DNA of 64,000 nt, from NCBI RefSeq assembly GCF_900176145.1, contig NZ_FWWY01000001.1:1287819-1351818 (forward strand), written 5' to 3'. The position numbers and the translations under genes were made by a program. Origin of the DNA: Sulfobacillus thermosulfidooxidans DSM 9293. GTDB taxonomy: Bacteria > Bacillota > Sulfobacillia > Sulfobacillales > Sulfobacillaceae. Below the pieces are notes generated by a model that saw only the letters and a program-made list of their open reading frames with translations, made no database searches and was not told where the DNA came from. Below, piece after piece: positions 3,847 to 43,347 of this stretch. How positions within the stretch are numbered: the first letter of the stretch is position 1; each line of letters opens with the position of its first letter.

Positions 3847-5169
3847 TCAAGAGGTTATCACCGTTGGGGGATTCGTTCCTCCGTGTTTATAGCGGGCAAC
3901 AAGTTCCCTGCGGTTGGCGGTATCGGTTTTGCGGTAAATATTGCGTAAATGCGTCTTTAAAGTATTAATCGATATATAGAGTTCATGGGTAATTTCTTTA
4001 TTGGACAACCCCTCTAGCAGCAACTGGGTAATCTTTTTTTCTTGCGGGGTTAAACAACATTGACGTAACCACTCTTCAGCCCGGTGTTGATGCTCATCGT
4101 TTCTTTCTTCATCATCTAAAGGAGAAAAAGGGGAAGAGATAGGCAGCGTCTTTGGGGATTCTTCTTGGTGCCTGGCTGTAGACCATGATAACGGAAGGAT
4201 ACTCATAAATAATAGGGTTAAGATGACCTGGGGCAAAATACGAGGATTGATCCACCAAGCCGCGGTATAGGAAGTGCCTAAGAGGATGACCCTAGCCAGA
4301 TTCATGCCAGCTGGGATTCGTAAAAAAGGACTCTCGCTGCCTTCCCATCCCATCAGGAAAGCCCACAGGGTGCCAGCCAAAAGAAGAAGAAGCAGCCATG
4401 GCCTTATGTCGGCATGCCAAATGAGCACAAAGCCCATGGTCGAAATAGCGAGATAGGCGACTAATGGGGAGCGAAGAAGCGATGGAGGATAAGGCCACCC
4501 TAAGATGCCCACGATCACAAGAGGTAAAGAAATGGCCTGCATCACCCAAGGGATATAGGGTTCTTTTAAGAATAAGCCCAAGGCAATGGTCATGAGCCAA
4601 GGACTCATCCTGTCCGAATGAGGTATGGTCAGAAGAGATGTTTCCATCTGAAACTTTCCGGATTTTTCTTCCTGGCCGGGAGGGTAAAACACAAGAAAGC
4701 CATAAGTCAAGCCCGTTCCTGCCATGAGTATGGGTGTGAGATGTGTTAACCGGTGTAAAAATGCGGTTAATGACAAAGAACCGATGACCGTGCTAAAACT
4801 CCATAAAGGTGACCTCGATGCGTATTGGCTGGAATAAACTGCAAAACGGTGCCATAAAGGTAACAGACTTACGACAATCCAAAGAATTTGAACGGCCTGA
4901 GGTGCCTCGTACAGAATGAGCACCGATATGCTGAGGTATCCAAGCATTAGGGTGCCAGGATGCCACCGCTTTAGACGGGAAGACATTGGTGAGGAGCGCA
5001 AGAGAACGAAGTACCCCATAAGAGCTATGAACATCACGCCTGAAATCCAGGACCCTTGGTTATTCCTGTCGAGAACGAAGATGCCCATGACGGCGATGGA
5101 CCAGATGAATACCGCCAACCTCATGACGCTTTGGGTCATCTGGCTTGAGACCATAAAGGTTTTGAACAC
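3847..5169 (-). CDS. Membrane-anchored LuxR-family transcriptional regulator
   Basis: A multi-spanning membrane protein (roughly ten hydrophobic segments over the first 300 residues) ends in a LuxR/FixJ-type helix-turn-helix (last 70 residues). The HTH shows the sequence LTPQEKKITQLLLEGLSNKE and then ISINTLKTHLRNIYRK. I chose GTG at 5169 because AGGAGGTG lies 9 nt upstream. An ATG at 5214 is in frame but has no good ribosome binding site. The fusion suggests a sensor that binds DNA from the membrane. It stands alone between the DUF4012 gene and the EPS locus, so control of those genes is a reasonable inference. No receiver domain is visible. Confidence 0.8.
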   Translation of the reverse strand: MFKTFMVSSQMTQSVMRLAVFIWSIAVMGIFVLDRNNQGSWISGVMFIALMGYFVLLRSSPMSSRLKRWHPGTLMLGYLSISVLILYEAPQAVQILWIVVSLLPLWHRFAVYSSQYASRSPLWSFSTVIGSLSLTAFLHRLTHLTPILMAGTGLTYGFLVFYPPGQEEKSGKFQMETSLLTIPHSDRMSPWLMTIALGLFLKEPYIPWVMQAISLPLVIVGILGWPYPPSLLRSPLVAYLAISTMGFVLIWHADIRPWLLLLLLAGTLWAFLMGWEGSESPFLRIPAGMNLARVILLGTSYTAAWWINPRILPQVILTLLFMSILPLSWSTARHQEESPKTLPISSPFSPLDDEERNDEHQHRAEEWLRQCCLTPQEKKITQLLLEGLSNKEITHELYISINTLKTHLRNIYRKTDTANRRELVARYKHGGTNPPTVITS

Positions 5170-5494
5170 CGAAGATCGCACCTCCTGATCTACGTTTTGA
5201 AATCTCAAGCTCATTAAACCGTCTTTGGCCTGGGCAAACCAGTTGGTTTACCCATGATGGTCCTAGGGGCTACTCCCTGTATCTGGACGGGAATAGCTCC
5301 TAGGTATTCGTGCCGGGTGAGAGGAAAGCCAGAAGGGCATAGGGACATCAACAGCTTATTTCATCCCCTTTTTCATCCTCTATGGGTGATGGTCTTAGAG
5401 CTTGGCATGATGCTAGCCTCAAGAATAATGACAATCATATGGCGCCCTGGTTAAGAACAGCATGACCGATGGGGGAAGAAAGGTAGAGACCAAG
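5170..5494. other. Intergenic region, divergent promoters expected
   Basis: This lies between a leftward regulator gene and a rightward gene, so both promoters should be here. I found no convincing -35/-10 pair, terminator or small ORF. The 13-bp sequence ATGACAATCATAT at 5428-5440 recurs at 6221-6233, just past the next gene. Confidence 0.4.
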
Positions 5495-6214
5495 ATGAAT
5501 GTGTCCTGGCCCGTATTACTAACCGCAACCATTGCACCCGCTCCCTTACCTTATTTAAAGATGGTTGATCCGGAAGAAAGGTGGTATCAATACCAACATG
5601 CTTTGATGTTTTGGCTGCAAAGACCGAAGGTGCAGCAAATCGTATTTTGTGATAATAGTGGCTATCACGCGGATTTTTCCCCCTTTTATCACTGGGCCGA
5701 AAAGCATCATAAGACGCTTGAAGTCTTAAGCTATGCGGGCAACGATCACGCACTCATCAAAGGACGCGGATTTGGTGAAGGGGAATTGATGCGTCATGCG
5801 CTTTACACCTCGCAAATTTTAACTCGGGCTCCTGGCTTCTTTAAAGTGACAGGGCGATTAATCGTGGAAAATTTCGACCAGTTAGAGGCGTTAACAACGC
5901 ATCAACCTGTGGTAATGTCACGGCGTTCACTTAGGCGACAAGGATGGGCTGATACCCGCTTTTTTAAGATGGATCGATCTTTTTATTGCCAGTATTTAAT
6001 CGATGTGCACGAGAAGGCCGAGCGTGATGACTGGATTTTAGGCGAAGCCTATGCCAAAGTCCTAGCGCCCTTTAGAATTCCTTCGTTTCCGAGGTCCTTG
6101 CGCATTCACGGGATAGCGGGCAATGGCGCCACTTACGACGACAAGATGTGGCGTTATATGCTGAAGTCTTTATGCGCCCAAGCCGGACTCTACCGTATCC
6201 GGGCTACGTCGTAA
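5495..6214 (+). CDS. Putative polysaccharide-biosynthesis protein, glycosyltransferase-like
   Basis: This 239-residue cytoplasmic protein has no signal peptide or membrane helix. Its layout (VFCDNSGYHADF, then RGFGEGELMRHAL, then KVTGRLIVENF) resembles small capsule or LPS proteins that handle nucleotide-linked sugars, but I cannot name the family and no DxD motif is clear. I chose ATG 5495 because an AAAGG sequence lies about a dozen bases upstream. An in-frame ATG at 5462 lacks a ribosome binding site. It converges with the kinase-like gene at 6254, and an EPS role is inferred from position. Confidence 0.55.
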   Translation: MNVSWPVLLTATIAPAPLPYLKMVDPEERWYQYQHALMFWLQRPKVQQIVFCDNSGYHADFSPFYHWAEKHHKTLEVLSYAGNDHALIKGRGFGEGELMRHALYTSQILTRAPGFFKVTGRLIVENFDQLEALTTHQPVVMSRRSLRRQGWADTRFFKMDRSFYCQYLIDVHEKAERDDWILGEAYAKVLAPFRIPSFPRSLRIHGIAGNGATYDDKMWRYMLKSLCAQAGLYRIRATS

Positions 6215-6253
6215 CGTCGGATGACAATCATATAAAGCCAGGGATAATCTGTC

Positions 6254-6889
6254 TTACTCTGAAAACTGGGTAAGAATACTCCCAATCACCGGGGCATGGG
6301 CTTGTTGTAATGCGTGAATGGCCTTGAGGTGTACGGACCGGGGATGAGTTCCCGAGGGAATGATGAGCAAGACGCCATCAACGAGGGCTGAGAGGATGAG
6401 GGTATCCGCAGAATCTAAAACCGGTGGAGCATCAATCAAAATCAAATCATATCGGCGTTTTAAGGCGGTGAAAAGTTCGTTGATTAGCAATGGTTCAAAC
6501 AATTCCGCGGCATTCGCCGATAACGGACCACTAGGTAAGAGCCAGACATTGGGGATGGGAGTGTCCATAATCACGGCATCCCACCCGGTACTTTGTGTGC
6601 CTTGAGCAAGAATCGTCGTGAGACCCTGGACATTTAAGATCCGAAAGTTGCGGTGTAATTGCGGATGCTTGAAACAGGCATCGATCAGTAGCACACGGTA
6701 GCCGCTATGGGCTAATAGAACCGCCAGATTACTGAGGGCAGTTGTGGTCCCGGATTCGCGTTCGGCGCTGGTCAACAACAAGGTTTTAGGCTCTTGATGC
6801 ATCCAAAACATCACGTGGGCTTTGAGATGGAGATATTGATCAAGGGCTTTGGCGACGTTCGGGCGCGGATGAGAGAGAATTTTTGGCAT
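6254..6889 (-). CDS. BY-kinase/CpsD-like ATPase with degenerate P-loop
   Basis: This 211-residue protein matches the cytoplasmic ATPase part of bacterial tyrosine kinases that control EPS chain length together with Wzz. Motifs are altered. The P-loop reads ERESGTTT (residues 43-50), with Thr48 where the nucleotide-binding lysine normally stands (PGEGKST). Walker A' reads LLIDACFKHP (68-76), with Cys72 replacing the second Asp of DxD. Walker B (LILIDAPP, 149-156) looks normal. There is no C-terminal tyrosine cluster. It overlaps the Wzz gene by 50 nt, and GAGG lies 9 nt before the ATG. It is probably a pseudokinase partner of Wzz, which is an inference from the missing residues. Confidence 0.8.
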   Translation of the reverse strand: MPKILSHPRPNVAKALDQYLHLKAHVMFWMHQEPKTLLLTSAERESGTTTALSNLAVLLAHSGYRVLLIDACFKHPQLHRNFRILNVQGLTTILAQGTQSTGWDAVIMDTPIPNVWLLPSGPLSANAAELFEPLLINELFTALKRRYDLILIDAPPVLDSADTLILSALVDGVLLIIPSGTHPRSVHLKAIHALQQAHAPVIGSILTQFSE

Positions 6890-37004: not shown

Positions 37005-39356
37005 TTAATGGGTGCGCGGAATAGACCAACTGGGAATTGGATGGGGGATAATCGTGGTGTGCCTGATACTGGCGACTAATAAGGACGCGAGTACGATGAC
37101 TGTGGAAAACACCACAAGCTTGGCAATGAGGTGATTGATATTGTTCCACTGAAAAAATTCGGGGGAAAAGGATGGCCAAGGTTCATAAATGAGCATCAAT
37201 GTGGTGGGAATCAGCAAGGAGCGGACAATGAGTGTATCGACCAAGAGACTCACCCCAATAATTAAACCCGTTAACTGCAAAAAGGGTACGGGCGTCATCA
37301 TCAGTGTGAAAAATGTTGTGGCGATAATGATGCCGGCTCCCGTAATACTGCCTCCCGTCTCATGAAGTGCTTTACCGATAGAAAACCTGGTGATTTCCGA
37401 TCCGATATCATGAACAAGAAGTATTTCATAATCGAGGGATAAGGCCATAAGAAGACTGACGACAACAATAATCATCGGAAAGAGTAAAATGGATTGTGAT
37501 AAAAGGGCCCAGTGCTGCGCAATACGCAAACCGGCTAGCAAAATGGTCAAATCAAACGCTGAGGCTAATAGACCTGCCAGCCAGCCTTTGGTCAGATACT
37601 TCATCGCCACCACCGTACCCAAAATTCCCAGAGCCAACACGCCGATTATTCCGTGGACCAATCCCGTATTGGCAGTAGCGGTATAGGCATGATTTCCGCC
37701 GCTGATGCCAAATTGCCATGGGGTGGGTAAGTGCTCCTTTAAGACGTCAATTAGCGAGGAACGGGGAAGTGGGGAAGGGCCGTTGATGGCAATGAGAATG
37801 ACATGTTGCTTCGAGTTTATGAGACCCGCGAGAGGAGATGATCCTGGAGAAATGTTATGAGCCTCTTTTGCCAAAACTTGTGGAGACGCGAACGAAGTCG
37901 GGCTGGAGAAATGATCATGCGGAGCTTTGCGGGAAACTAGTGTTGTAATATTTGCTATCGTCTGCCAAGTACTAACGGCATTAAACGAACTGGTGGGTTG
38001 AATGACAATAGCATCTTGAACATTTTTCCTCGGTGGTGGGGAGGTGAGTTTTAGGGCTTGATATAGAGCACTATGTTGCGGCAACAGTTCGAGGGAATTG
38101 ACCGGCGTCGTGAGCGTAAATGGCGGATAGGGTTTGGCTAATGCGAAAATTGTGATGGCCATTAAGGCGAGAAGGATCCCTTGAGGAGCTTTTTGTAAAA
38201 TGGCCTGTAAAGTCTCGTAAGCATGATCGAGTCCGTCGGAAAGGGATGTTTTCCATGATGCCCAGGAAATTAGCGCGGGCCATGACGCTAATAAAGGATA
38301 TGTCACCCAGCGGATAGTCAGATATGTGACGAGCACAGCAATCCATGCGCTCATTACAAGAGAAATACTCAAAGAATGCGGAAGAAATAACAGACCGCTC
38401 AAAACCGCAATCAATACGGTAGCGGATAGGGAGATGGCTCCTAACACACGGCGACGGGTTCTGGCGTCGGCTTGTTGTTTAGCTTCTGATGGGGATAATC
38501 CTTGCTTGTTTGCGATGAAATACTCACGACGAAATCGTAAACTTAAAAACACACTATAATCGATGCTCAAACCCAACGTTAAGAGTTCCACAATGTTTAC
38601 GGAGAATTCCGATAAATGTCCATGAATAGTGAAGAGCACCATGAATGCGGATGCATATAGTGTCGCTAATGCCCCGCCAATTAAAGACAACAACGTGAGG
38701 GGTAAGGAACCCAAAATTGCCATCAGTAATAGGGCTGCAAGTCCTAACGCATCCACTTCGGTGGTGGATAAACTGTGCTCGACGGCATGATTTAGCCAAC
38801 GGTTGGCGGTATTAGCGTTGAGCACGGTAGGGTCATCTTGGGAAGGTAGATGCACAATCCATTGCGTGGCAGCCAAGGCATATTGCGGATGCACAATCTG
38901 GATCAAGGTCGCACCATCAGTTAAAGCATAAAACTTTAGATTGGCAACTGGGATAGCACCATGTGTATTGTGCCATTGCTCTAGCAGCTGAGTTTTTGAT
39001 GCTGTTACTAACCAACTGCTGGCTTGATCATAATTCAGGGGTCCTGCGTCTACCCCTTGGGCGGCGATGGCGCTTAAATGATCGGCCCATAGCAAAGAAT
39101 TTTGAGAACTGAGTAATTGACTGCTCTGAGTATGGCTTCCTAACTGCCTCGCGGCGGGCCACAACCAAACTGCCAACAAACAAGCCAAGACAAAGACCAA
39201 TGGCGCTCGGAGAAAGCGAAGCGGACCAAATAGTTGCGAAATCCCGATAAACAAAATGAGCCCAAGCAATATAAAACTGATGTCTATTGCCAAGATACTC
39301 GAATGTGCACCTGTAAGATGCAAGGTAATGCCCCATAAATGGATCGTTGGGATCAA
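37005..39356 (-). CDS. MMPL/RND-family transporter
   Basis: This 783-residue membrane protein has two blocks of five to six helices separated by an extracellular loop (about 430-560), as in MMPL exporters of lipids and hydrophobic compounds. The hallmark LGLSIDYSVFLSLRFRREY (first block) and ALSLDYEILLVHDIGSEI (second block) carry the Asp-Tyr pair used for proton coupling. The N-terminal helix pair before the first loop is shorter than in mycobacterial MmpL. The substrate is unknown; no regulator or adaptor lies beside it. Confidence 0.85.
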   Translation of the reverse strand: MIPTIHLWGITLHLTGAHSSILAIDISFILLGLILFIGISQLFGPLRFLRAPLVFVLACLLAVWLWPAARQLGSHTQSSQLLSSQNSLLWADHLSAIAAQGVDAGPLNYDQASSWLVTASKTQLLEQWHNTHGAIPVANLKFYALTDGATLIQIVHPQYALAATQWIVHLPSQDDPTVLNANTANRWLNHAVEHSLSTTEVDALGLAALLLMAILGSLPLTLLSLIGGALATLYASAFMVLFTIHGHLSEFSVNIVELLTLGLSIDYSVFLSLRFRREYFIANKQGLSPSEAKQQADARTRRRVLGAISLSATVLIAVLSGLLFLPHSLSISLVMSAWIAVLVTYLTIRWVTYPLLASWPALISWASWKTSLSDGLDHAYETLQAILQKAPQGILLALMAITIFALAKPYPPFTLTTPVNSLELLPQHSALYQALKLTSPPPRKNVQDAIVIQPTSSFNAVSTWQTIANITTLVSRKAPHDHFSSPTSFASPQVLAKEAHNISPGSSPLAGLINSKQHVILIAINGPSPLPRSSLIDVLKEHLPTPWQFGISGGNHAYTATANTGLVHGIIGVLALGILGTVVAMKYLTKGWLAGLLASAFDLTILLAGLRIAQHWALLSQSILLFPMIIVVVSLLMALSLDYEILLVHDIGSEITRFSIGKALHETGGSITGAGIIIATTFFTLMMTPVPFLQLTGLIIGVSLLVDTLIVRSLLIPTTLMLIYEPWPSFSPEFFQWNNINHLIAKLVVFSTVIVLASLLVASIRHTTIIPHPIPSWSIPRTH

Positions 39357-39531: not shown

Positions 39532-39825
39532 ATGGCTCACGAAGGCTTACACGAAGATCCTCAGGTTCTCAGTTCGGCAGTGCTTAACCAACATCGGGCG
39601 ATTCTCTCTTTAATGGAAGAACTGGAGGCAATCGATTGGTACGCACAGCGCGCTGCCGCGTGTGATGATGGGGAACTTCAAGCAATTCTACTTCACAATA
39701 TGAATGACGAAATGGAACATGCCGCCATGCTTATGGAATGGTTGCGGCGGACGATGCCTCATTTCGATAAAGAAATGAAGAAATTTTTATTCACAAAAGA
39801 ACCTATTGCGGTACGTGGTGACTGA
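39532..39825 (+). CDS. Encapsulated-ferritin-like (EncFtn) protein, orphan
   Basis: This 97-residue protein matches EncFtn, a two-helix ferritin relative that forms annular decamers and oxidises Fe(II). Key residues are in place: the EELEAIDWY run (Glu29, Glu30, Glu32, Trp36, Tyr37) and DEMEH (Glu60, His63), which correspond to the metal-entry and ferroxidase ligands. It ends FLFTKEPIAVRGD without the C-terminal targeting peptide that EncFtn proteins use to enter encapsulin, and no encapsulin gene follows. GGGAGG lies upstream of ATG 39532. It may work free in the cytosol in iron handling, relevant to an iron-rich acidic habitat. Confidence 0.85.
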   Translation: MAHEGLHEDPQVLSSAVLNQHRAILSLMEELEAIDWYAQRAAACDDGELQAILLHNMNDEMEHAAMLMEWLRRTMPHFDKEMKKFLFTKEPIAVRGD

Positions 39826-40585
39826 TCAATTCATGGCATCCTGTATTGCGATTTGCCACGGCCCCATTTAAAGGACTAAATTTTTGCGTACAGGGTTCGC
39901 ACAGGAATTTTAGGAGAGTCAAGATCTGGGCTTGGACCATAGCACTTGGCAAAGTATTTCCAGATCATTTTGAGCTCATCATCAGACTGTCTCGGAGCTT
40001 CTGTCGTGGTGAAAATATCACTGTCCCATGAAATCAACTTTCATTGTTCGGCTAATTACTAGGGTGCTCTATCGAATAGCAGAGTGCCCTGTTTTTGATG
40101 AGCAAAAGAGCTCTCTTTGCCCAAAATGCACAAAACATCTCAAAATGTTTTTGGCATGTCCCCAGCGCAACAATGAACGATACGACCATCGAATCCCGGT
40201 CATTGTCCGTAGTCTTCACCTCACGAATATTACCATCCTATTATGAATGTTGTTCCGAATCTTTGGGATCATATGGAGTCAGGGCTTGTCGATCCTAGAG
40301 TCTTAGAATACGGTAGTCAGCTCCCTTTGCGCTATGGCAACCTCCCAATCCTGTATCAAGTATTCAACGATACGATAAGCAATAACTGACCGTTTCAGTT
40401 AATTCGCATTTCCGCCACCAGATGTCCCTATATCTCTAATATTTGTCGCTAGCTTTCTTTGGCATAAACAAAATTCGATAAAAAAGCAATCCTGATAAAT
40501 TTGGACACATTGACATTGCGAAGCGAGAATTTTGCGCTAATATTGATTAAATCAAGACTCTTACTATCAAAGGGGTGAACATCTG
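39826..40585. other. 760-nt gap without a supported gene
   Basis: Short frames here (for example 40028-40246, which has a CxxC) have no ribosome binding site and no family features. This is where an encapsulin gene would be expected after EncFtn, but none is present in any frame. No clear hairpin. It may be decayed sequence. Confidence 0.45.
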
Positions 40586-42007
40586 GTGTGGGACCGAGAG
40601 TCTCTTGACGAGAGCATTTTGAGTTCACTGCGTGCATTGGTGGCATCTCAAGAAGATGTTGACTATATCGAAATACGTCTCGAATATAACGAATCCACAA
40701 ATCTCGAGACGTTAAATGATCATGTGCGCCACCAAGCCCATGTGGTGGAAATAGGGGGCAATGTTCGCGTATTTCATCAAGGGGCAGTAGGATTTGTCCA
40801 TTTTGACGGATGGGATGACTTGCCTCGCCATATCAACGATGCGAAACTGCTTGCCAAATGGGAAAATTCGTCCAGTTTCCCCTGGGGATCTCAAGACTCG
40901 CCGGCCCCAGCCGATCCTGTCTATTCGGTTCAGCGATTGGTGACCTTAGAAAACCCGCTTAAGGTGCCTTTGGAAGACAAAATTCATCTCTTATTAGGTT
41001 ATGCCGAACTGGCCCATATAACGCATCCTTTGGTGAAATCTGTCACCGGGCGTTATTTTGACCGGTACCGCCACTTGTGGTTTGCCGATAACCGGGGCAG
41101 TGCCATCGAGCAAGAGAAACTGGATCTGGGCGGTAACATCGTGGTCATGGCGCGGAATTCAAACGGGACCGCACAACGCGGGGTGTCTTTTGGATCATCG
41201 AACGATTTCGGGGTATTACGCAATTTGGACGATCAAATTAAAGACGCGGCCAGGTCAGCGGTGGCGTTATTGGATGCGCCTGAAGTGGAAGGCGGGGAAT
41301 ATACCGTTGTGGTCGACCCGTATCTTGCCGGGGTCTTCGCGCATGAAGCATTTGGCCACTTGAGTGAAGCCGATGGCCAAGTGGGAGACGAAGGACTGTT
41401 GGAACAGATGGTCTTGGGTCGAAAATTCGGACCACCCAATCTCCATATTTATGACACGGGCAAGGATATGGGAAGCCGGGGCTATCTGCCTTTTGACGAT
41501 GAGGGCGTGCCGGCACAAGATGTTGATTTGATTAAAGACGGAGTTCTTGTGGGTCGGTTGCATTCTCGAGAAACAGCGGCCCACTTGGGGGAACGGCCAA
41601 CAGGAAATGCGCGGGCTTTGCATTACCGTTTTCCGCCTATTGTGCGCATGCGCAATACCGTCATTGCTCCTGGAGATACGGCCTTTGCGGATCTTTTTCA
41701 GGGTATCAAGCGAGGCATCTATGCCAAAGGAACCCATGGGGGACAGACCAATGGGGAACTCTTCACGTTTTTAGCCGCAGAAGCCTATCTCATTGAGGAC
41801 GGGAAAATTACACGGCCTGTCCGAAATGCCGTGCTGACCGGCAATGTGTTTAGTACACTTCAGCAAATTACCGCGATTGGCAATGATTTTACCCGCTATG
41901 AAGGCGGGGGAGGATGTGGTAAGGCAGGGCAAATGCCGTTGCCGGTGAGTCATCATGCGCCATCTCTGCGGATTGAACGGTGTGTGGTAGGAGGTCGGGG
42001 ACGATGA
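40586..42007 (+). CDS. tldD: TldD-family metalloprotease
   Basis: This 473-residue TldD/PmbA family protein contains the zinc motif HEAFGH (residues 253-258, in VFAHEAFGHLSEADGQ), which defines the catalytic TldD partner. The C-terminal part has NAVLTGNVFSTLQQITAIGND. TldD works with TldE to cleave unfolded peptides. The start is GTG 40586, spaced behind AAAGGGG. It is coupled to the TldE-like gene by an ATGA overlap at 42004. Confidence 0.9.
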   Translation: MWDRESLDESILSSLRALVASQEDVDYIEIRLEYNESTNLETLNDHVRHQAHVVEIGGNVRVFHQGAVGFVHFDGWDDLPRHINDAKLLAKWENSSSFPWGSQDSPAPADPVYSVQRLVTLENPLKVPLEDKIHLLLGYAELAHITHPLVKSVTGRYFDRYRHLWFADNRGSAIEQEKLDLGGNIVVMARNSNGTAQRGVSFGSSNDFGVLRNLDDQIKDAARSAVALLDAPEVEGGEYTVVVDPYLAGVFAHEAFGHLSEADGQVGDEGLLEQMVLGRKFGPPNLHIYDTGKDMGSRGYLPFDDEGVPAQDVDLIKDGVLVGRLHSRETAAHLGERPTGNARALHYRFPPIVRMRNTVIAPGDTAFADLFQGIKRGIYAKGTHGGQTNGELFTFLAAEAYLIEDGKITRPVRNAVLTGNVFSTLQQITAIGNDFTRYEGGGGCGKAGQMPLPVSHHAPSLRIERCVVGGRGR

Positions 42008-43347
42008 TAGACAAGCTGACAGCGAAAGAAGACCATGGCGGTCCCTTATCGTGGAATGCGGGGGAAGTAGGAGACGGCGCGAAAATAAAGCGGTCGACAT
42101 GGACTGTCGAAATCAAGCGGGGACAGAATCCTTTCGTTCAGCATGGCACAGAACAGGTTCGTGCGGTACGTGTTATAGACCACGGTCGGCTGGGGTACGC
42201 CACCTCGAGAACTCAACCTTGGGCACAACTTAAAGAGGAAGCCTATGCAGCTACCCCGTTTGGTCCAGAAACTTATATGGATGAACCTGTGTTGGAGGAA
42301 AACGAATCTGAGCCTGTGAGTTCTCAATGGGATCCCTCTTTGATGCCCTCCATGATGGCTGCAGCCAAGACGTTATACCACAAGCTAGAAGACGTGGATC
42401 CGCGGTTTCGTCCCACTGTGTCCATATCCTATGAGGAAATCGAAACGCACCTTAGCAATTCGTTAGGAGGGCACGTGGCCTTTATCCGGGGATATTGGGC
42501 GATATCCGCTGGGGGCCGCCTGGTTACCGATACAGATTTTCACGCCATCAGTGAGACGCGCCTTGGGCCGAGTGCATTGTCCCAGGCTTCCGAGTTAGGA
42601 GATATGGTGGTTGAACGTTTTAAGATGGGACAACCCATTCGTTCTGTAACCCCTGGACGCTATCCCGTCGTATTCCTGCCGCCGGTGGTGATGAATCTTT
42701 TAACCCCCGTCTTGACACGGTTGTCCGGTCCGAGCCTTTTGGCTGGGAGTTCGCCGTGGGATGATCAAGCGGGAAAGCCCGTTCTTTCGCCGTTATTCAC
42801 CCTCATTAGCGATCCGACGATTCCTGGTGCCCCGCGTACGGGCCGGTGGGATGATGAGGGAACCGTAACCCAACGCACTCCATTAGTTGAGAAAGGGATC
42901 TTACAGCACTTCATTCTCGACCGTGACAGCGCGAGACGACGAGGTCAGGAACCTCAGGGGATGGGCTTTCGGCGAACTCCAGGTACGCTACCTGCGGCAC
43001 TGCCAGCCAATTTGGTCCTCTCTCCAGGAACGGGGGAATTAGCCGAGTGGGGAGCACGCTTTCCTTTTCTGCTGATTTTAGGGGGGTGGATTGGTGCGCG
43101 GCCAACTAATCCTATTCGGGGCGATATCGCGGGCAATGCGAGTGAGCTCTATGTCATGGAAAACGGCGTGATCACCGGCCGTGCCAAAAATGTCGTGGTC
43201 AGCCTCAATGCTCTGGACGCATTAAGCCATCAATTATTAGACATTGGCCAAGATAGCCACTGGGTTCCCCAAGGAATGATGACGGTGGCCCCGGGTTTGT
43301 TGCCTCCTGTCTTGATTGATGCCGTGGATATTCAAGTCCGGCGATAA
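42004..43347 (+). CDS. TldE/PmbA-like partner protein
   Basis: This 447-residue TldD/PmbA-fold protein lacks the HExxxH zinc motif, so it is the non-catalytic partner. Family features are RTPLVEKGILQHFILDRDSA, then PGTGELAEWGARFPFLLILG and PIRGDIAGNASELYVMENGVITGRAKNVV. ATG 42004 overlaps the tldD stop. The N-terminus is divergent from Proteobacterial PmbA. A peptide-import operon follows after a 190-nt gap, consistent with peptide turnover. Confidence 0.85.
   Translation: MIDKLTAKEDHGGPLSWNAGEVGDGAKIKRSTWTVEIKRGQNPFVQHGTEQVRAVRVIDHGRLGYATSRTQPWAQLKEEAYAATPFGPETYMDEPVLEENESEPVSSQWDPSLMPSMMAAAKTLYHKLEDVDPRFRPTVSISYEEIETHLSNSLGGHVAFIRGYWAISAGGRLVTDTDFHAISETRLGPSALSQASELGDMVVERFKMGQPIRSVTPGRYPVVFLPPVVMNLLTPVLTRLSGPSLLAGSSPWDDQAGKPVLSPLFTLISDPTIPGAPRTGRWDDEGTVTQRTPLVEKGILQHFILDRDSARRRGQEPQGMGFRRTPGTLPAALPANLVLSPGTGELAEWGARFPFLLILGGWIGARPTNPIRGDIAGNASELYVMENGVITGRAKNVVVSLNALDALSHQLLDIGQDSHWVPQGMMTVAPGLLPPVLIDAVDIQVRR

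What the first reader, a model, noticed from the sequence alone, without database searches (positions are those of the whole stretch)
39532..39825. Orphan encapsulated-ferritin-like protein without encapsulin or targeting tag
Ferroxidase and entry-site residues are all kept (EELEAIDWY, DEMEH), but the C-terminus lacks a targeting peptide and no encapsulin shell gene follows in the next 760 nt. It may store or detoxify iron in another way, relevant for an iron oxidiser.
Basis: partly seen in the sequence, partly recalled or inferred. Interest (0 to 1): 0.6.

Follow-up and report, generated by a model that had tools for sequence, protein, structure and literature searches.

The report
Shell-less EncFtn ferritin in Sulfobacillus
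A small iron-oxidising protein that normally works inside a protein shell is here encoded without the shell or its address tag, in a bacterium whose relatives still have a shell system and which itself keeps only a decayed remnant of one.

Summary
Window 39532-39825 (+) encodes a 97-aa EncFtn-fold protein (PF22277, 1e-37) with the ferroxidase residues kept and no targeting peptide. Its closest solved relative is NE0167/3k6c. The 99.92%-complete genome has no Family-1 encapsulin and no second EncFtn. A congener contig matches the S. thermotolerans chromosome length exactly, so the genus is Sulfobacillus. The kind is known: a 2024 review names tagless short FLPs ("s-FLP") and leaves open whether they are encapsulated. 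My data speak against it. Of 80 related genomes, all 6 with a tagged EncFtn have an encapsulin. Of 74 with a tagless one, 1 has, and that shell sits beside its own tagged EncFtn. In Sulfobacillus, 6 of 8 genomes carry an encapsulin with a different, tandem-ferritin cargo. The window's species and its sister lack both genes but keep the flanking genes; a decayed remnant of cargo and shell lies between them. Most likely: a free cytosolic ferroxidase that oxidises Fe2+ without storing it. New member of a known but uncharacterised kind.

The parts
39532..39825 (+). tagless EncFtn-like (s-FLP type) gene, 97 aa
39520..39525 (+). ribosome-binding site GGGAGG
   Evidence: read; the sister copy has AAGGAGG at a similar distance
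39616..39642 (+). codons of EELEAIDWY (residues 29-37): entry-site E29/E32, ferroxidase E30 and Y37
   Evidence: residue roles from the legend in PMC5012862; conservation
39706..39720 (+). codons of DEMEH (residues 59-63): ferroxidase E60 and H63
39784..39822 (+). codons of the C-terminal tail FLFTKEPIAVRGD, no targeting peptide
   Evidence: contrast the tags
37005..39356 (-). divergent MMPL-family membrane protein; also next to the sister's EncFtn (there broken into three frames)
   Evidence: PF03176 3.2e-24
39826..40585 (.). downstream interval without an encapsulin or any ORF of 75 aa or more lying wholly inside it
40586..43347 (+). two overlapping TldD/PmbA genes; not next to EncFtn in the sister genome
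   Evidence: PF19289/PF19290

Best explanation
The gene makes a free-standing, non-encapsulated EncFtn (s-FLP): a two-helix subunit that pairs with a second one to form a di-iron ferroxidase centre and, by homology, assembles into an open ring of ten in the cytosol. It oxidises Fe2+ with O2 or H2O2 and hands Fe3+ on (to phosphate, Dps or the soluble pool) instead of storing it, so it serves iron and peroxide detoxification, not storage. In this Sulfobacillus lineage it is present while the ancestral encapsulin with its tandem-ferritin cargo has decayed. Shown: family, fold (predicted model), residues, absence of tag and Family-1 shell, remnant of the old operon. Inferred: ring, ferroxidase activity, cytosolic role, fate of Fe3+, and that it took over any job of the lost system.
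For: Family and fold: pLDDT 89.3; best PDB match 3k6c. No Family-1 shell in the genome; control genomes with encapsulin rang. Tag and shell go together: of 80 loci, 6 of 6 genomes with a tagged EncFtn have an encapsulin and 1 of 74 with a tagless one; that one, G098, keeps both forms, and the shell lies beside the tagged form. In a phylum sample 17 of 17 other strong EncFtn loci read are tagged with an encapsulin in the same locus. Lost shell: flanks conserved in order in G000 and G003, cargo and shell missing, remnants of both in G000 at 35.8 and 32.0 bits against at most 22.7 in 500 shuffles. Purifying selection. Biochemistry of a relative: EncFtn alone is a ferroxidase that cannot mineralise. 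Stress-gene context of tagless relatives: beside RFO and/or DUF3501 genes of the rubrerythrin cluster in 7 of 74 loci.
Against: No activity, oligomer or expression data exist for this protein in what I searched. The stress-gene context is not found at the window locus, whose neighbours (MMPL, TldD/PmbA) say nothing about iron. The window lineage lies outside the large proteobacterial s-FLP clade, so transfer of function from it is weak. Most of the 80 related genomes are MAGs, in which absence of a shell is weaker evidence, and the loci are not independent. A Family-2 shell was not excluded: the PF19307 search found nothing but its controls were silent too.
Confidence: 0.72

Rival explanations
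1. It works as a rubrerythrin-like peroxide reductase or other di-iron redox enzyme, fed with electrons by an Fe-S oxidoreductase (RFO) and DUF3501, and bulk Fe2+ oxidation is secondary.
For: In 7 of 74 tagless loci the gene lies directly beside RFO and/or DUF3501, in 4 of them between the two, and a rubrerythrin precedes in 3. These genes are the published aerobic rubrerythrin cluster. A flavoprotein that reads like glutathione reductase lies within 5.5 kb in 5 loci. The window's genome has a DUF3501 gene next to RFO-like and Fur-like ORFs.
Against: In the window genome that cluster lies about 960 kb away, and 67 of 74 tagless loci showed no such direct neighbour by this method. The R. rubrum relative is a proven ferroxidase.
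Confidence: 0.18
2. It is encapsulated after all, by a cryptic C-terminal signal or by a shell of another family, as the 2024 review leaves open for s-FLPs.
For: The review points out that the short tail could hold an undefined signal. Family 2 was not properly excluded (silent controls).
Against: No PF04454 in the own genome. 73 of 74 genomes with a tagless form lack it, and the one with both forms has the shell beside the tagged one. Family-2 shells are said to load cargo by N-terminal domains (passage), and this protein has none.
Confidence: 0.05
3. It is the left-behind cargo of the encapsulin that this lineage lost, drifting without function.
For: A decayed encapsulin operon exists in the same genome.
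Against: The lost operon's cargo was a tandem-ferritin protein (PF00210/PF02915), not EncFtn. EncFtn sits about 592 kb away, is intact in both sister species and evolves under purifying selection.
Confidence: 0.03

Closest known systems
NE0167 of Nitrosomonas europaea, PDB 3k6c ('s-FLP' class)
   Same: 95 aa, no targeting peptide, 59% identity, best PDB hit by sequence and by fold
   Different: NE0167 groups with the proteobacterial s-FLP clade; the window's protein forms a separate lineage with its sister and an actinobacterial MAG (99/82)
Encapsulated EncFtn of Rhodospirillum rubrum (5da5) and Haliangium ochraceum (5n5f)
   Same: fold and ferroxidase residues; 51-52% identity
   Different: those have a C-terminal extension with a targeting peptide and act with an encapsulin; this has neither
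Two-bundle ferritin (Bfr-type) encapsulin cargo described in PMC8346489 (passage)
   Same: the system found in 6 of 8 Sulfobacillus genomes and, decayed, in this one; my match to that cargo type rests on architecture and tag
   Different: another ferritin-like family (PF00210/PF02915, about 280 aa, tags such as TVGSLK), not EncFtn
Dps
   Same: iron detoxification; the genome has one PF00210 protein of 161 aa that reads like Dps
   Different: Dps forms a closed 12-mer cage that stores iron; the sister G003 has no PF00210 match at all

Membership tests
EncFtn-like fold family (PF22277) | profile match above the curated cut-off | tested here: met
   128.2 against 27 bits
EncFtn-like fold family (PF22277) | ferroxidase residues (R. 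rubrum E32, Y39, E62, H65) | tested here: met
   E30, Y37, E60, H63. The conservation counts are biased, because the retrieval patterns contained part of these motifs.
EncFtn-like fold family (PF22277) | two long antiparallel helices plus a short third | tested here: met
   model helices 15-43, 47-74, 78-87; Foldseek to 3k6c 1.2e-7
EncFtn-like fold family (PF22277) | decamer and ferroxidase activity | not testable with these tools
   needs purified protein
Encapsulated EncFtn cargo (FLP-TP) | C-terminal targeting peptide | tested here: not met
   97 aa, tail FLFTKEPIAVRGD
Encapsulated EncFtn cargo (FLP-TP) | encapsulin gene next to it or in the genome | tested here: not met
Encapsulated EncFtn cargo (FLP-TP) | NCBIfam TIGR04535 cut-off | tested here: not met
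   114.2 against 125 bits
s-FLP (tagless short EncFtn, type 3k6c) | about 95 aa, EncFtn domain, no targeting peptide | tested here: met
s-FLP (tagless short EncFtn, type 3k6c) | one clade with the proteobacterial s-FLPs | tested here: inconclusive
   best tree places it outside the large clade; a tree holding 8 tagged rows together on one side is not rejected (p-AU 0.585)
Family-2 encapsulin system | SrpI-like shell gene (PF19307; the link of this accession to Family 2 is recalled) | tested here: inconclusive
   0 of 8 genomes of the genus, but no control genome rang

The most novel reading that the evidence does not exclude
Shell-less EncFtns are a separate, widespread class of free cytosolic di-iron enzymes tied to the rubrerythrin/RFO/DUF3501 peroxide defence. 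One Sulfobacillus lineage exchanged its encapsulin iron store for such a free enzyme, leaving a decayed shell operon behind, so in a habitat loaded with iron, oxidation without storage was enough.
Probability: 0.25. Interest if true: 0.65.

Novelty: new member of a known kind. Interest (0 to 1): 0.45.

Why it matters
EncFtn is regarded as a protein that needs its shell to store iron. A conserved class kept without any shell implies that oxidation without storage is useful by itself. The 2024 review leaves open whether the tagless class is encapsulated; the genome-wide tag-shell association found here answers that largely in the negative. Two closely related Sulfobacillus groups, one with a shell and one with a free EncFtn, make the question testable in related organisms.

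Tried and rejected
Rejected: encapsulin elsewhere in the genome; relic cargo of the lost shell (its cargo was another family); pseudogene (intact in two species, purifying selection); a conserved promoter or operator (the upstream regions of the window and its sister show no clear conserved block outside the ribosome-binding site, and the promoter scan is at chance level).

Led nowhere: Family-2 search (controls silent); the second contig against plasmids (one transposase match of 84% to a Sulfobacillus acidophilus plasmid); paper searches 'encapsulin' with 'Sulfobacillus' (one paper, a review on recycling of metals by its listing) and three tag/orphan phrases (none). Giessen and Silver 2017, cited by the review where it says these proteins were first classified as non-encapsulated, is not held, so I have not seen it. 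Of the papers cited I saw: PMC11202242 passages, section 5 and part of the reference list; PMC5012862, PMC5114695, PMC8346489, PMC6934571, PMC6803676 and PMC4378227 passages only.

Dropped before a count: of 398 phylum genomes 47 were over the PF22277 cut-off; I read only the 17 strong matches outside the window's genome that came with loci. A second copy in G392 and the weaker matches (27-38 bits) were not examined. G026 (same order) also carries a tagless EncFtn, split over two reading frames, and no encapsulin; it was left out of the tree. A first neighbour listing missed nine of the 17 phylum loci because its motif was too strict and was redone.

Full report
What is there. Window 39532-39825 (+) is a 97-aa ORF with a good ribosome-binding site. 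It matches the Pfam family EncFtn-like (1e-37). Its best solved relative by sequence is NE0167 of Nitrosomonas europaea (3k6c, E 6.4e-31), and an AlphaFold2 model (pLDDT 89.3, 26-sequence alignment) finds the same entry first by fold. Ferroxidase residues E30, Y37, E60, H63 and entry residues E29, E32 correspond to the R. rubrum set named in PMC5012862. The protein ends FLFTKEPIAVRGD with no targeting peptide. Against the copy in the sister genome G003 there are 15 nonsynonymous and 49 synonymous differences, with synonymous sites saturated, so it is a maintained gene.

Where it is. The window is part of a 3.86-Mb, 99.92%-complete genome. A congener in the same search set, G004, has a single contig of 3,317,203 bases. 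That is exactly the chromosome length printed for Sulfobacillus thermotolerans Kr1 (abstract and passages of PMC6803676), so the genus is Sulfobacillus. Many Sulfobacillus isolates oxidise iron (passage, PMC4378227); for this species itself I did not test it.

No shell. PF04454 gives no match in the genome while three control genomes ring; there is no second EncFtn. A Family-2 search found nothing, but its controls were silent, so it proves little. The only PF00210 protein of the genome is a 161-aa one that reads like Dps; the sister G003 has none.

Tag and shell go together. A scan of one genome per species gave 80 loci closest to the query (535 relatives before the cap). Seventy-four are tagless, 94-102 aa, and six carry a tagged extension. 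All 80 genomes were searched for PF04454 in two calls. Encapsulin over the cut-off was found in 6 of 6 with a tagged EncFtn and 1 of 74 with a tagless one; one further weak hit of 23.6 bits in G053 lies in a 107-aa frame and is below the cut-off. The single exception, a Thiohalocapsa MAG, has a separate tagged EncFtn immediately beside its encapsulin, so both forms coexist and only the tagged one travels with the shell. Caveats: the loci were ranked by likeness to a tagless query, so 74 of 80 is not a frequency; tags were judged by length and by eye (the script's pattern alone misses two of them); most records are MAGs; rows are related to each other (Fisher p 2e-8 without correction for relatedness). 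In a 398-genome sample of the window's phylum, 17 other genomes have a strong EncFtn (127 bits or more), and in 17 of 17 loci read the protein is tagged and an encapsulin lies in the same locus. Within that sample the window's protein is the only tagless strong match.

The lost shell. Of 8 Sulfobacillus genomes, 6 have an encapsulin and the same 6 have, directly before it, a tandem ferritin-like protein of about 280 aa, ending in tag-like WTVGSLKD or WTVGPLKD where I read it (PF00210/PF02915). The two without, the window's genome G000 and G003, are the two with the tagless EncFtn and are sisters: 93.8% and 95.8% identity in two proteins, against 68-81% to the two other congeners compared. So this is one lineage, not two independent cases. 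In both, the genes on either side of the encapsulin operon are kept in order, but cargo and shell are missing between a ~200-aa gene and a Nudix gene (G000:C1 about 735398-735628). In G000 the gap holds a 30-residue match to the cargo (35.8 bits, interrupted by a stop) followed by a match to the encapsulin C-terminus (32.0 bits; the two alignments overlap at their edge); G003 has a shorter encapsulin match (26.9 bits). The best scores in 500 dinucleotide shuffles of the G000 gap were 21.2 and 22.7 bits. The same gene order (Nudix, encapsulin, tandem ferritin) occurs in another genus of the family (G018). So the shell system was lost by decay in this lineage. Its cargo was not EncFtn; EncFtn lies about 592 kb away beside an MMPL gene that also neighbours the sister's copy. 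Whether EncFtn took over any task of the lost system is inference.

Origin. In the tree, window and sister group with an actinobacterial MAG protein (99/82) and lie outside the large proteobacterial tagless clade (74 rows, 94/92). Long branches and only 95 columns make this uncertain. A tree that holds eight tagged rows together on one side is not rejected (p-AU 0.585). One tagged protein, L101, falls inside the tagless clade.

How it most likely works. EncFtn alone oxidises Fe2+ but cannot mineralise it, and yields precipitates in vitro (PMC5012862). By homology the window's protein is a shell-free ferroxidase that lowers free Fe2+ and consumes O2 or peroxide. In tagless relatives the gene lies directly beside RFO and/or DUF3501, genes of the published aerobic rubrerythrin cluster (PMC5114695), in 7 of 74 loci, in 4 of them between the two. 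I did not see EncFtn mentioned in the passages read of that paper. The window's genome has a DUF3501 gene with RFO-like and Fur-like neighbours (by profile, by reading), but about 960 kb away. This supports a link to oxidative stress for the class, not directly for this gene.

Known or new. The class is named s-FLP in a 2024 review, which notes that it was first called non-encapsulated and leaves the question open. This is therefore a new member of a known, biochemically uncharacterised kind. What I did not find in print, within the searches, is the tag-shell association test, the encapsulin remnant in Sulfobacillus, or the EncFtn-RFO-DUF3501 arrangement.

Noticed in passing
outside the window: G000:C1 about 735398-735628 (L173): Decayed remnant of an encapsulin operon (tandem-ferritin cargo, then shell C-terminus) between conserved flanking genes.
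   Followed up: yes
L010, L011, L012 and congeners: Sulfobacillus encapsulins are preceded by a tandem ferritin-like cargo tagged like TVGSLK/TVGPLK, resembling the two-bundle Bfr cargo reported in PMC8346489.
   Followed up: partly
L044, L061, L092, L097 (also L071, L076, L114): Tagless EncFtn lies in the rubrerythrin - Fe-S oxidoreductase - DUF3501 cluster of Proteobacteria.
   Followed up: partly
L003 / G026:C1:268545-268782: A tagless EncFtn gene split over two reading frames in a single-contig genome of the same order, without encapsulin: decaying gene or sequencing error.
   Followed up: no
L101 and L123 (G080): A tagged EncFtn nested in the tagless clade, with its genome's encapsulin on another contig: possible regain of a tag.
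   Followed up: no
L156 (G003), 4196-6723: The MMPL gene next to EncFtn is broken into three frames in the sister genome but intact in the window (37005-39356).
   Followed up: no
L039, 6552-7190: An ORF that reads like superoxide dismutase lies 3 kb upstream of the nearest non-Sulfobacillus tagless relative, in an actinobacterial MAG.
   Followed up: no
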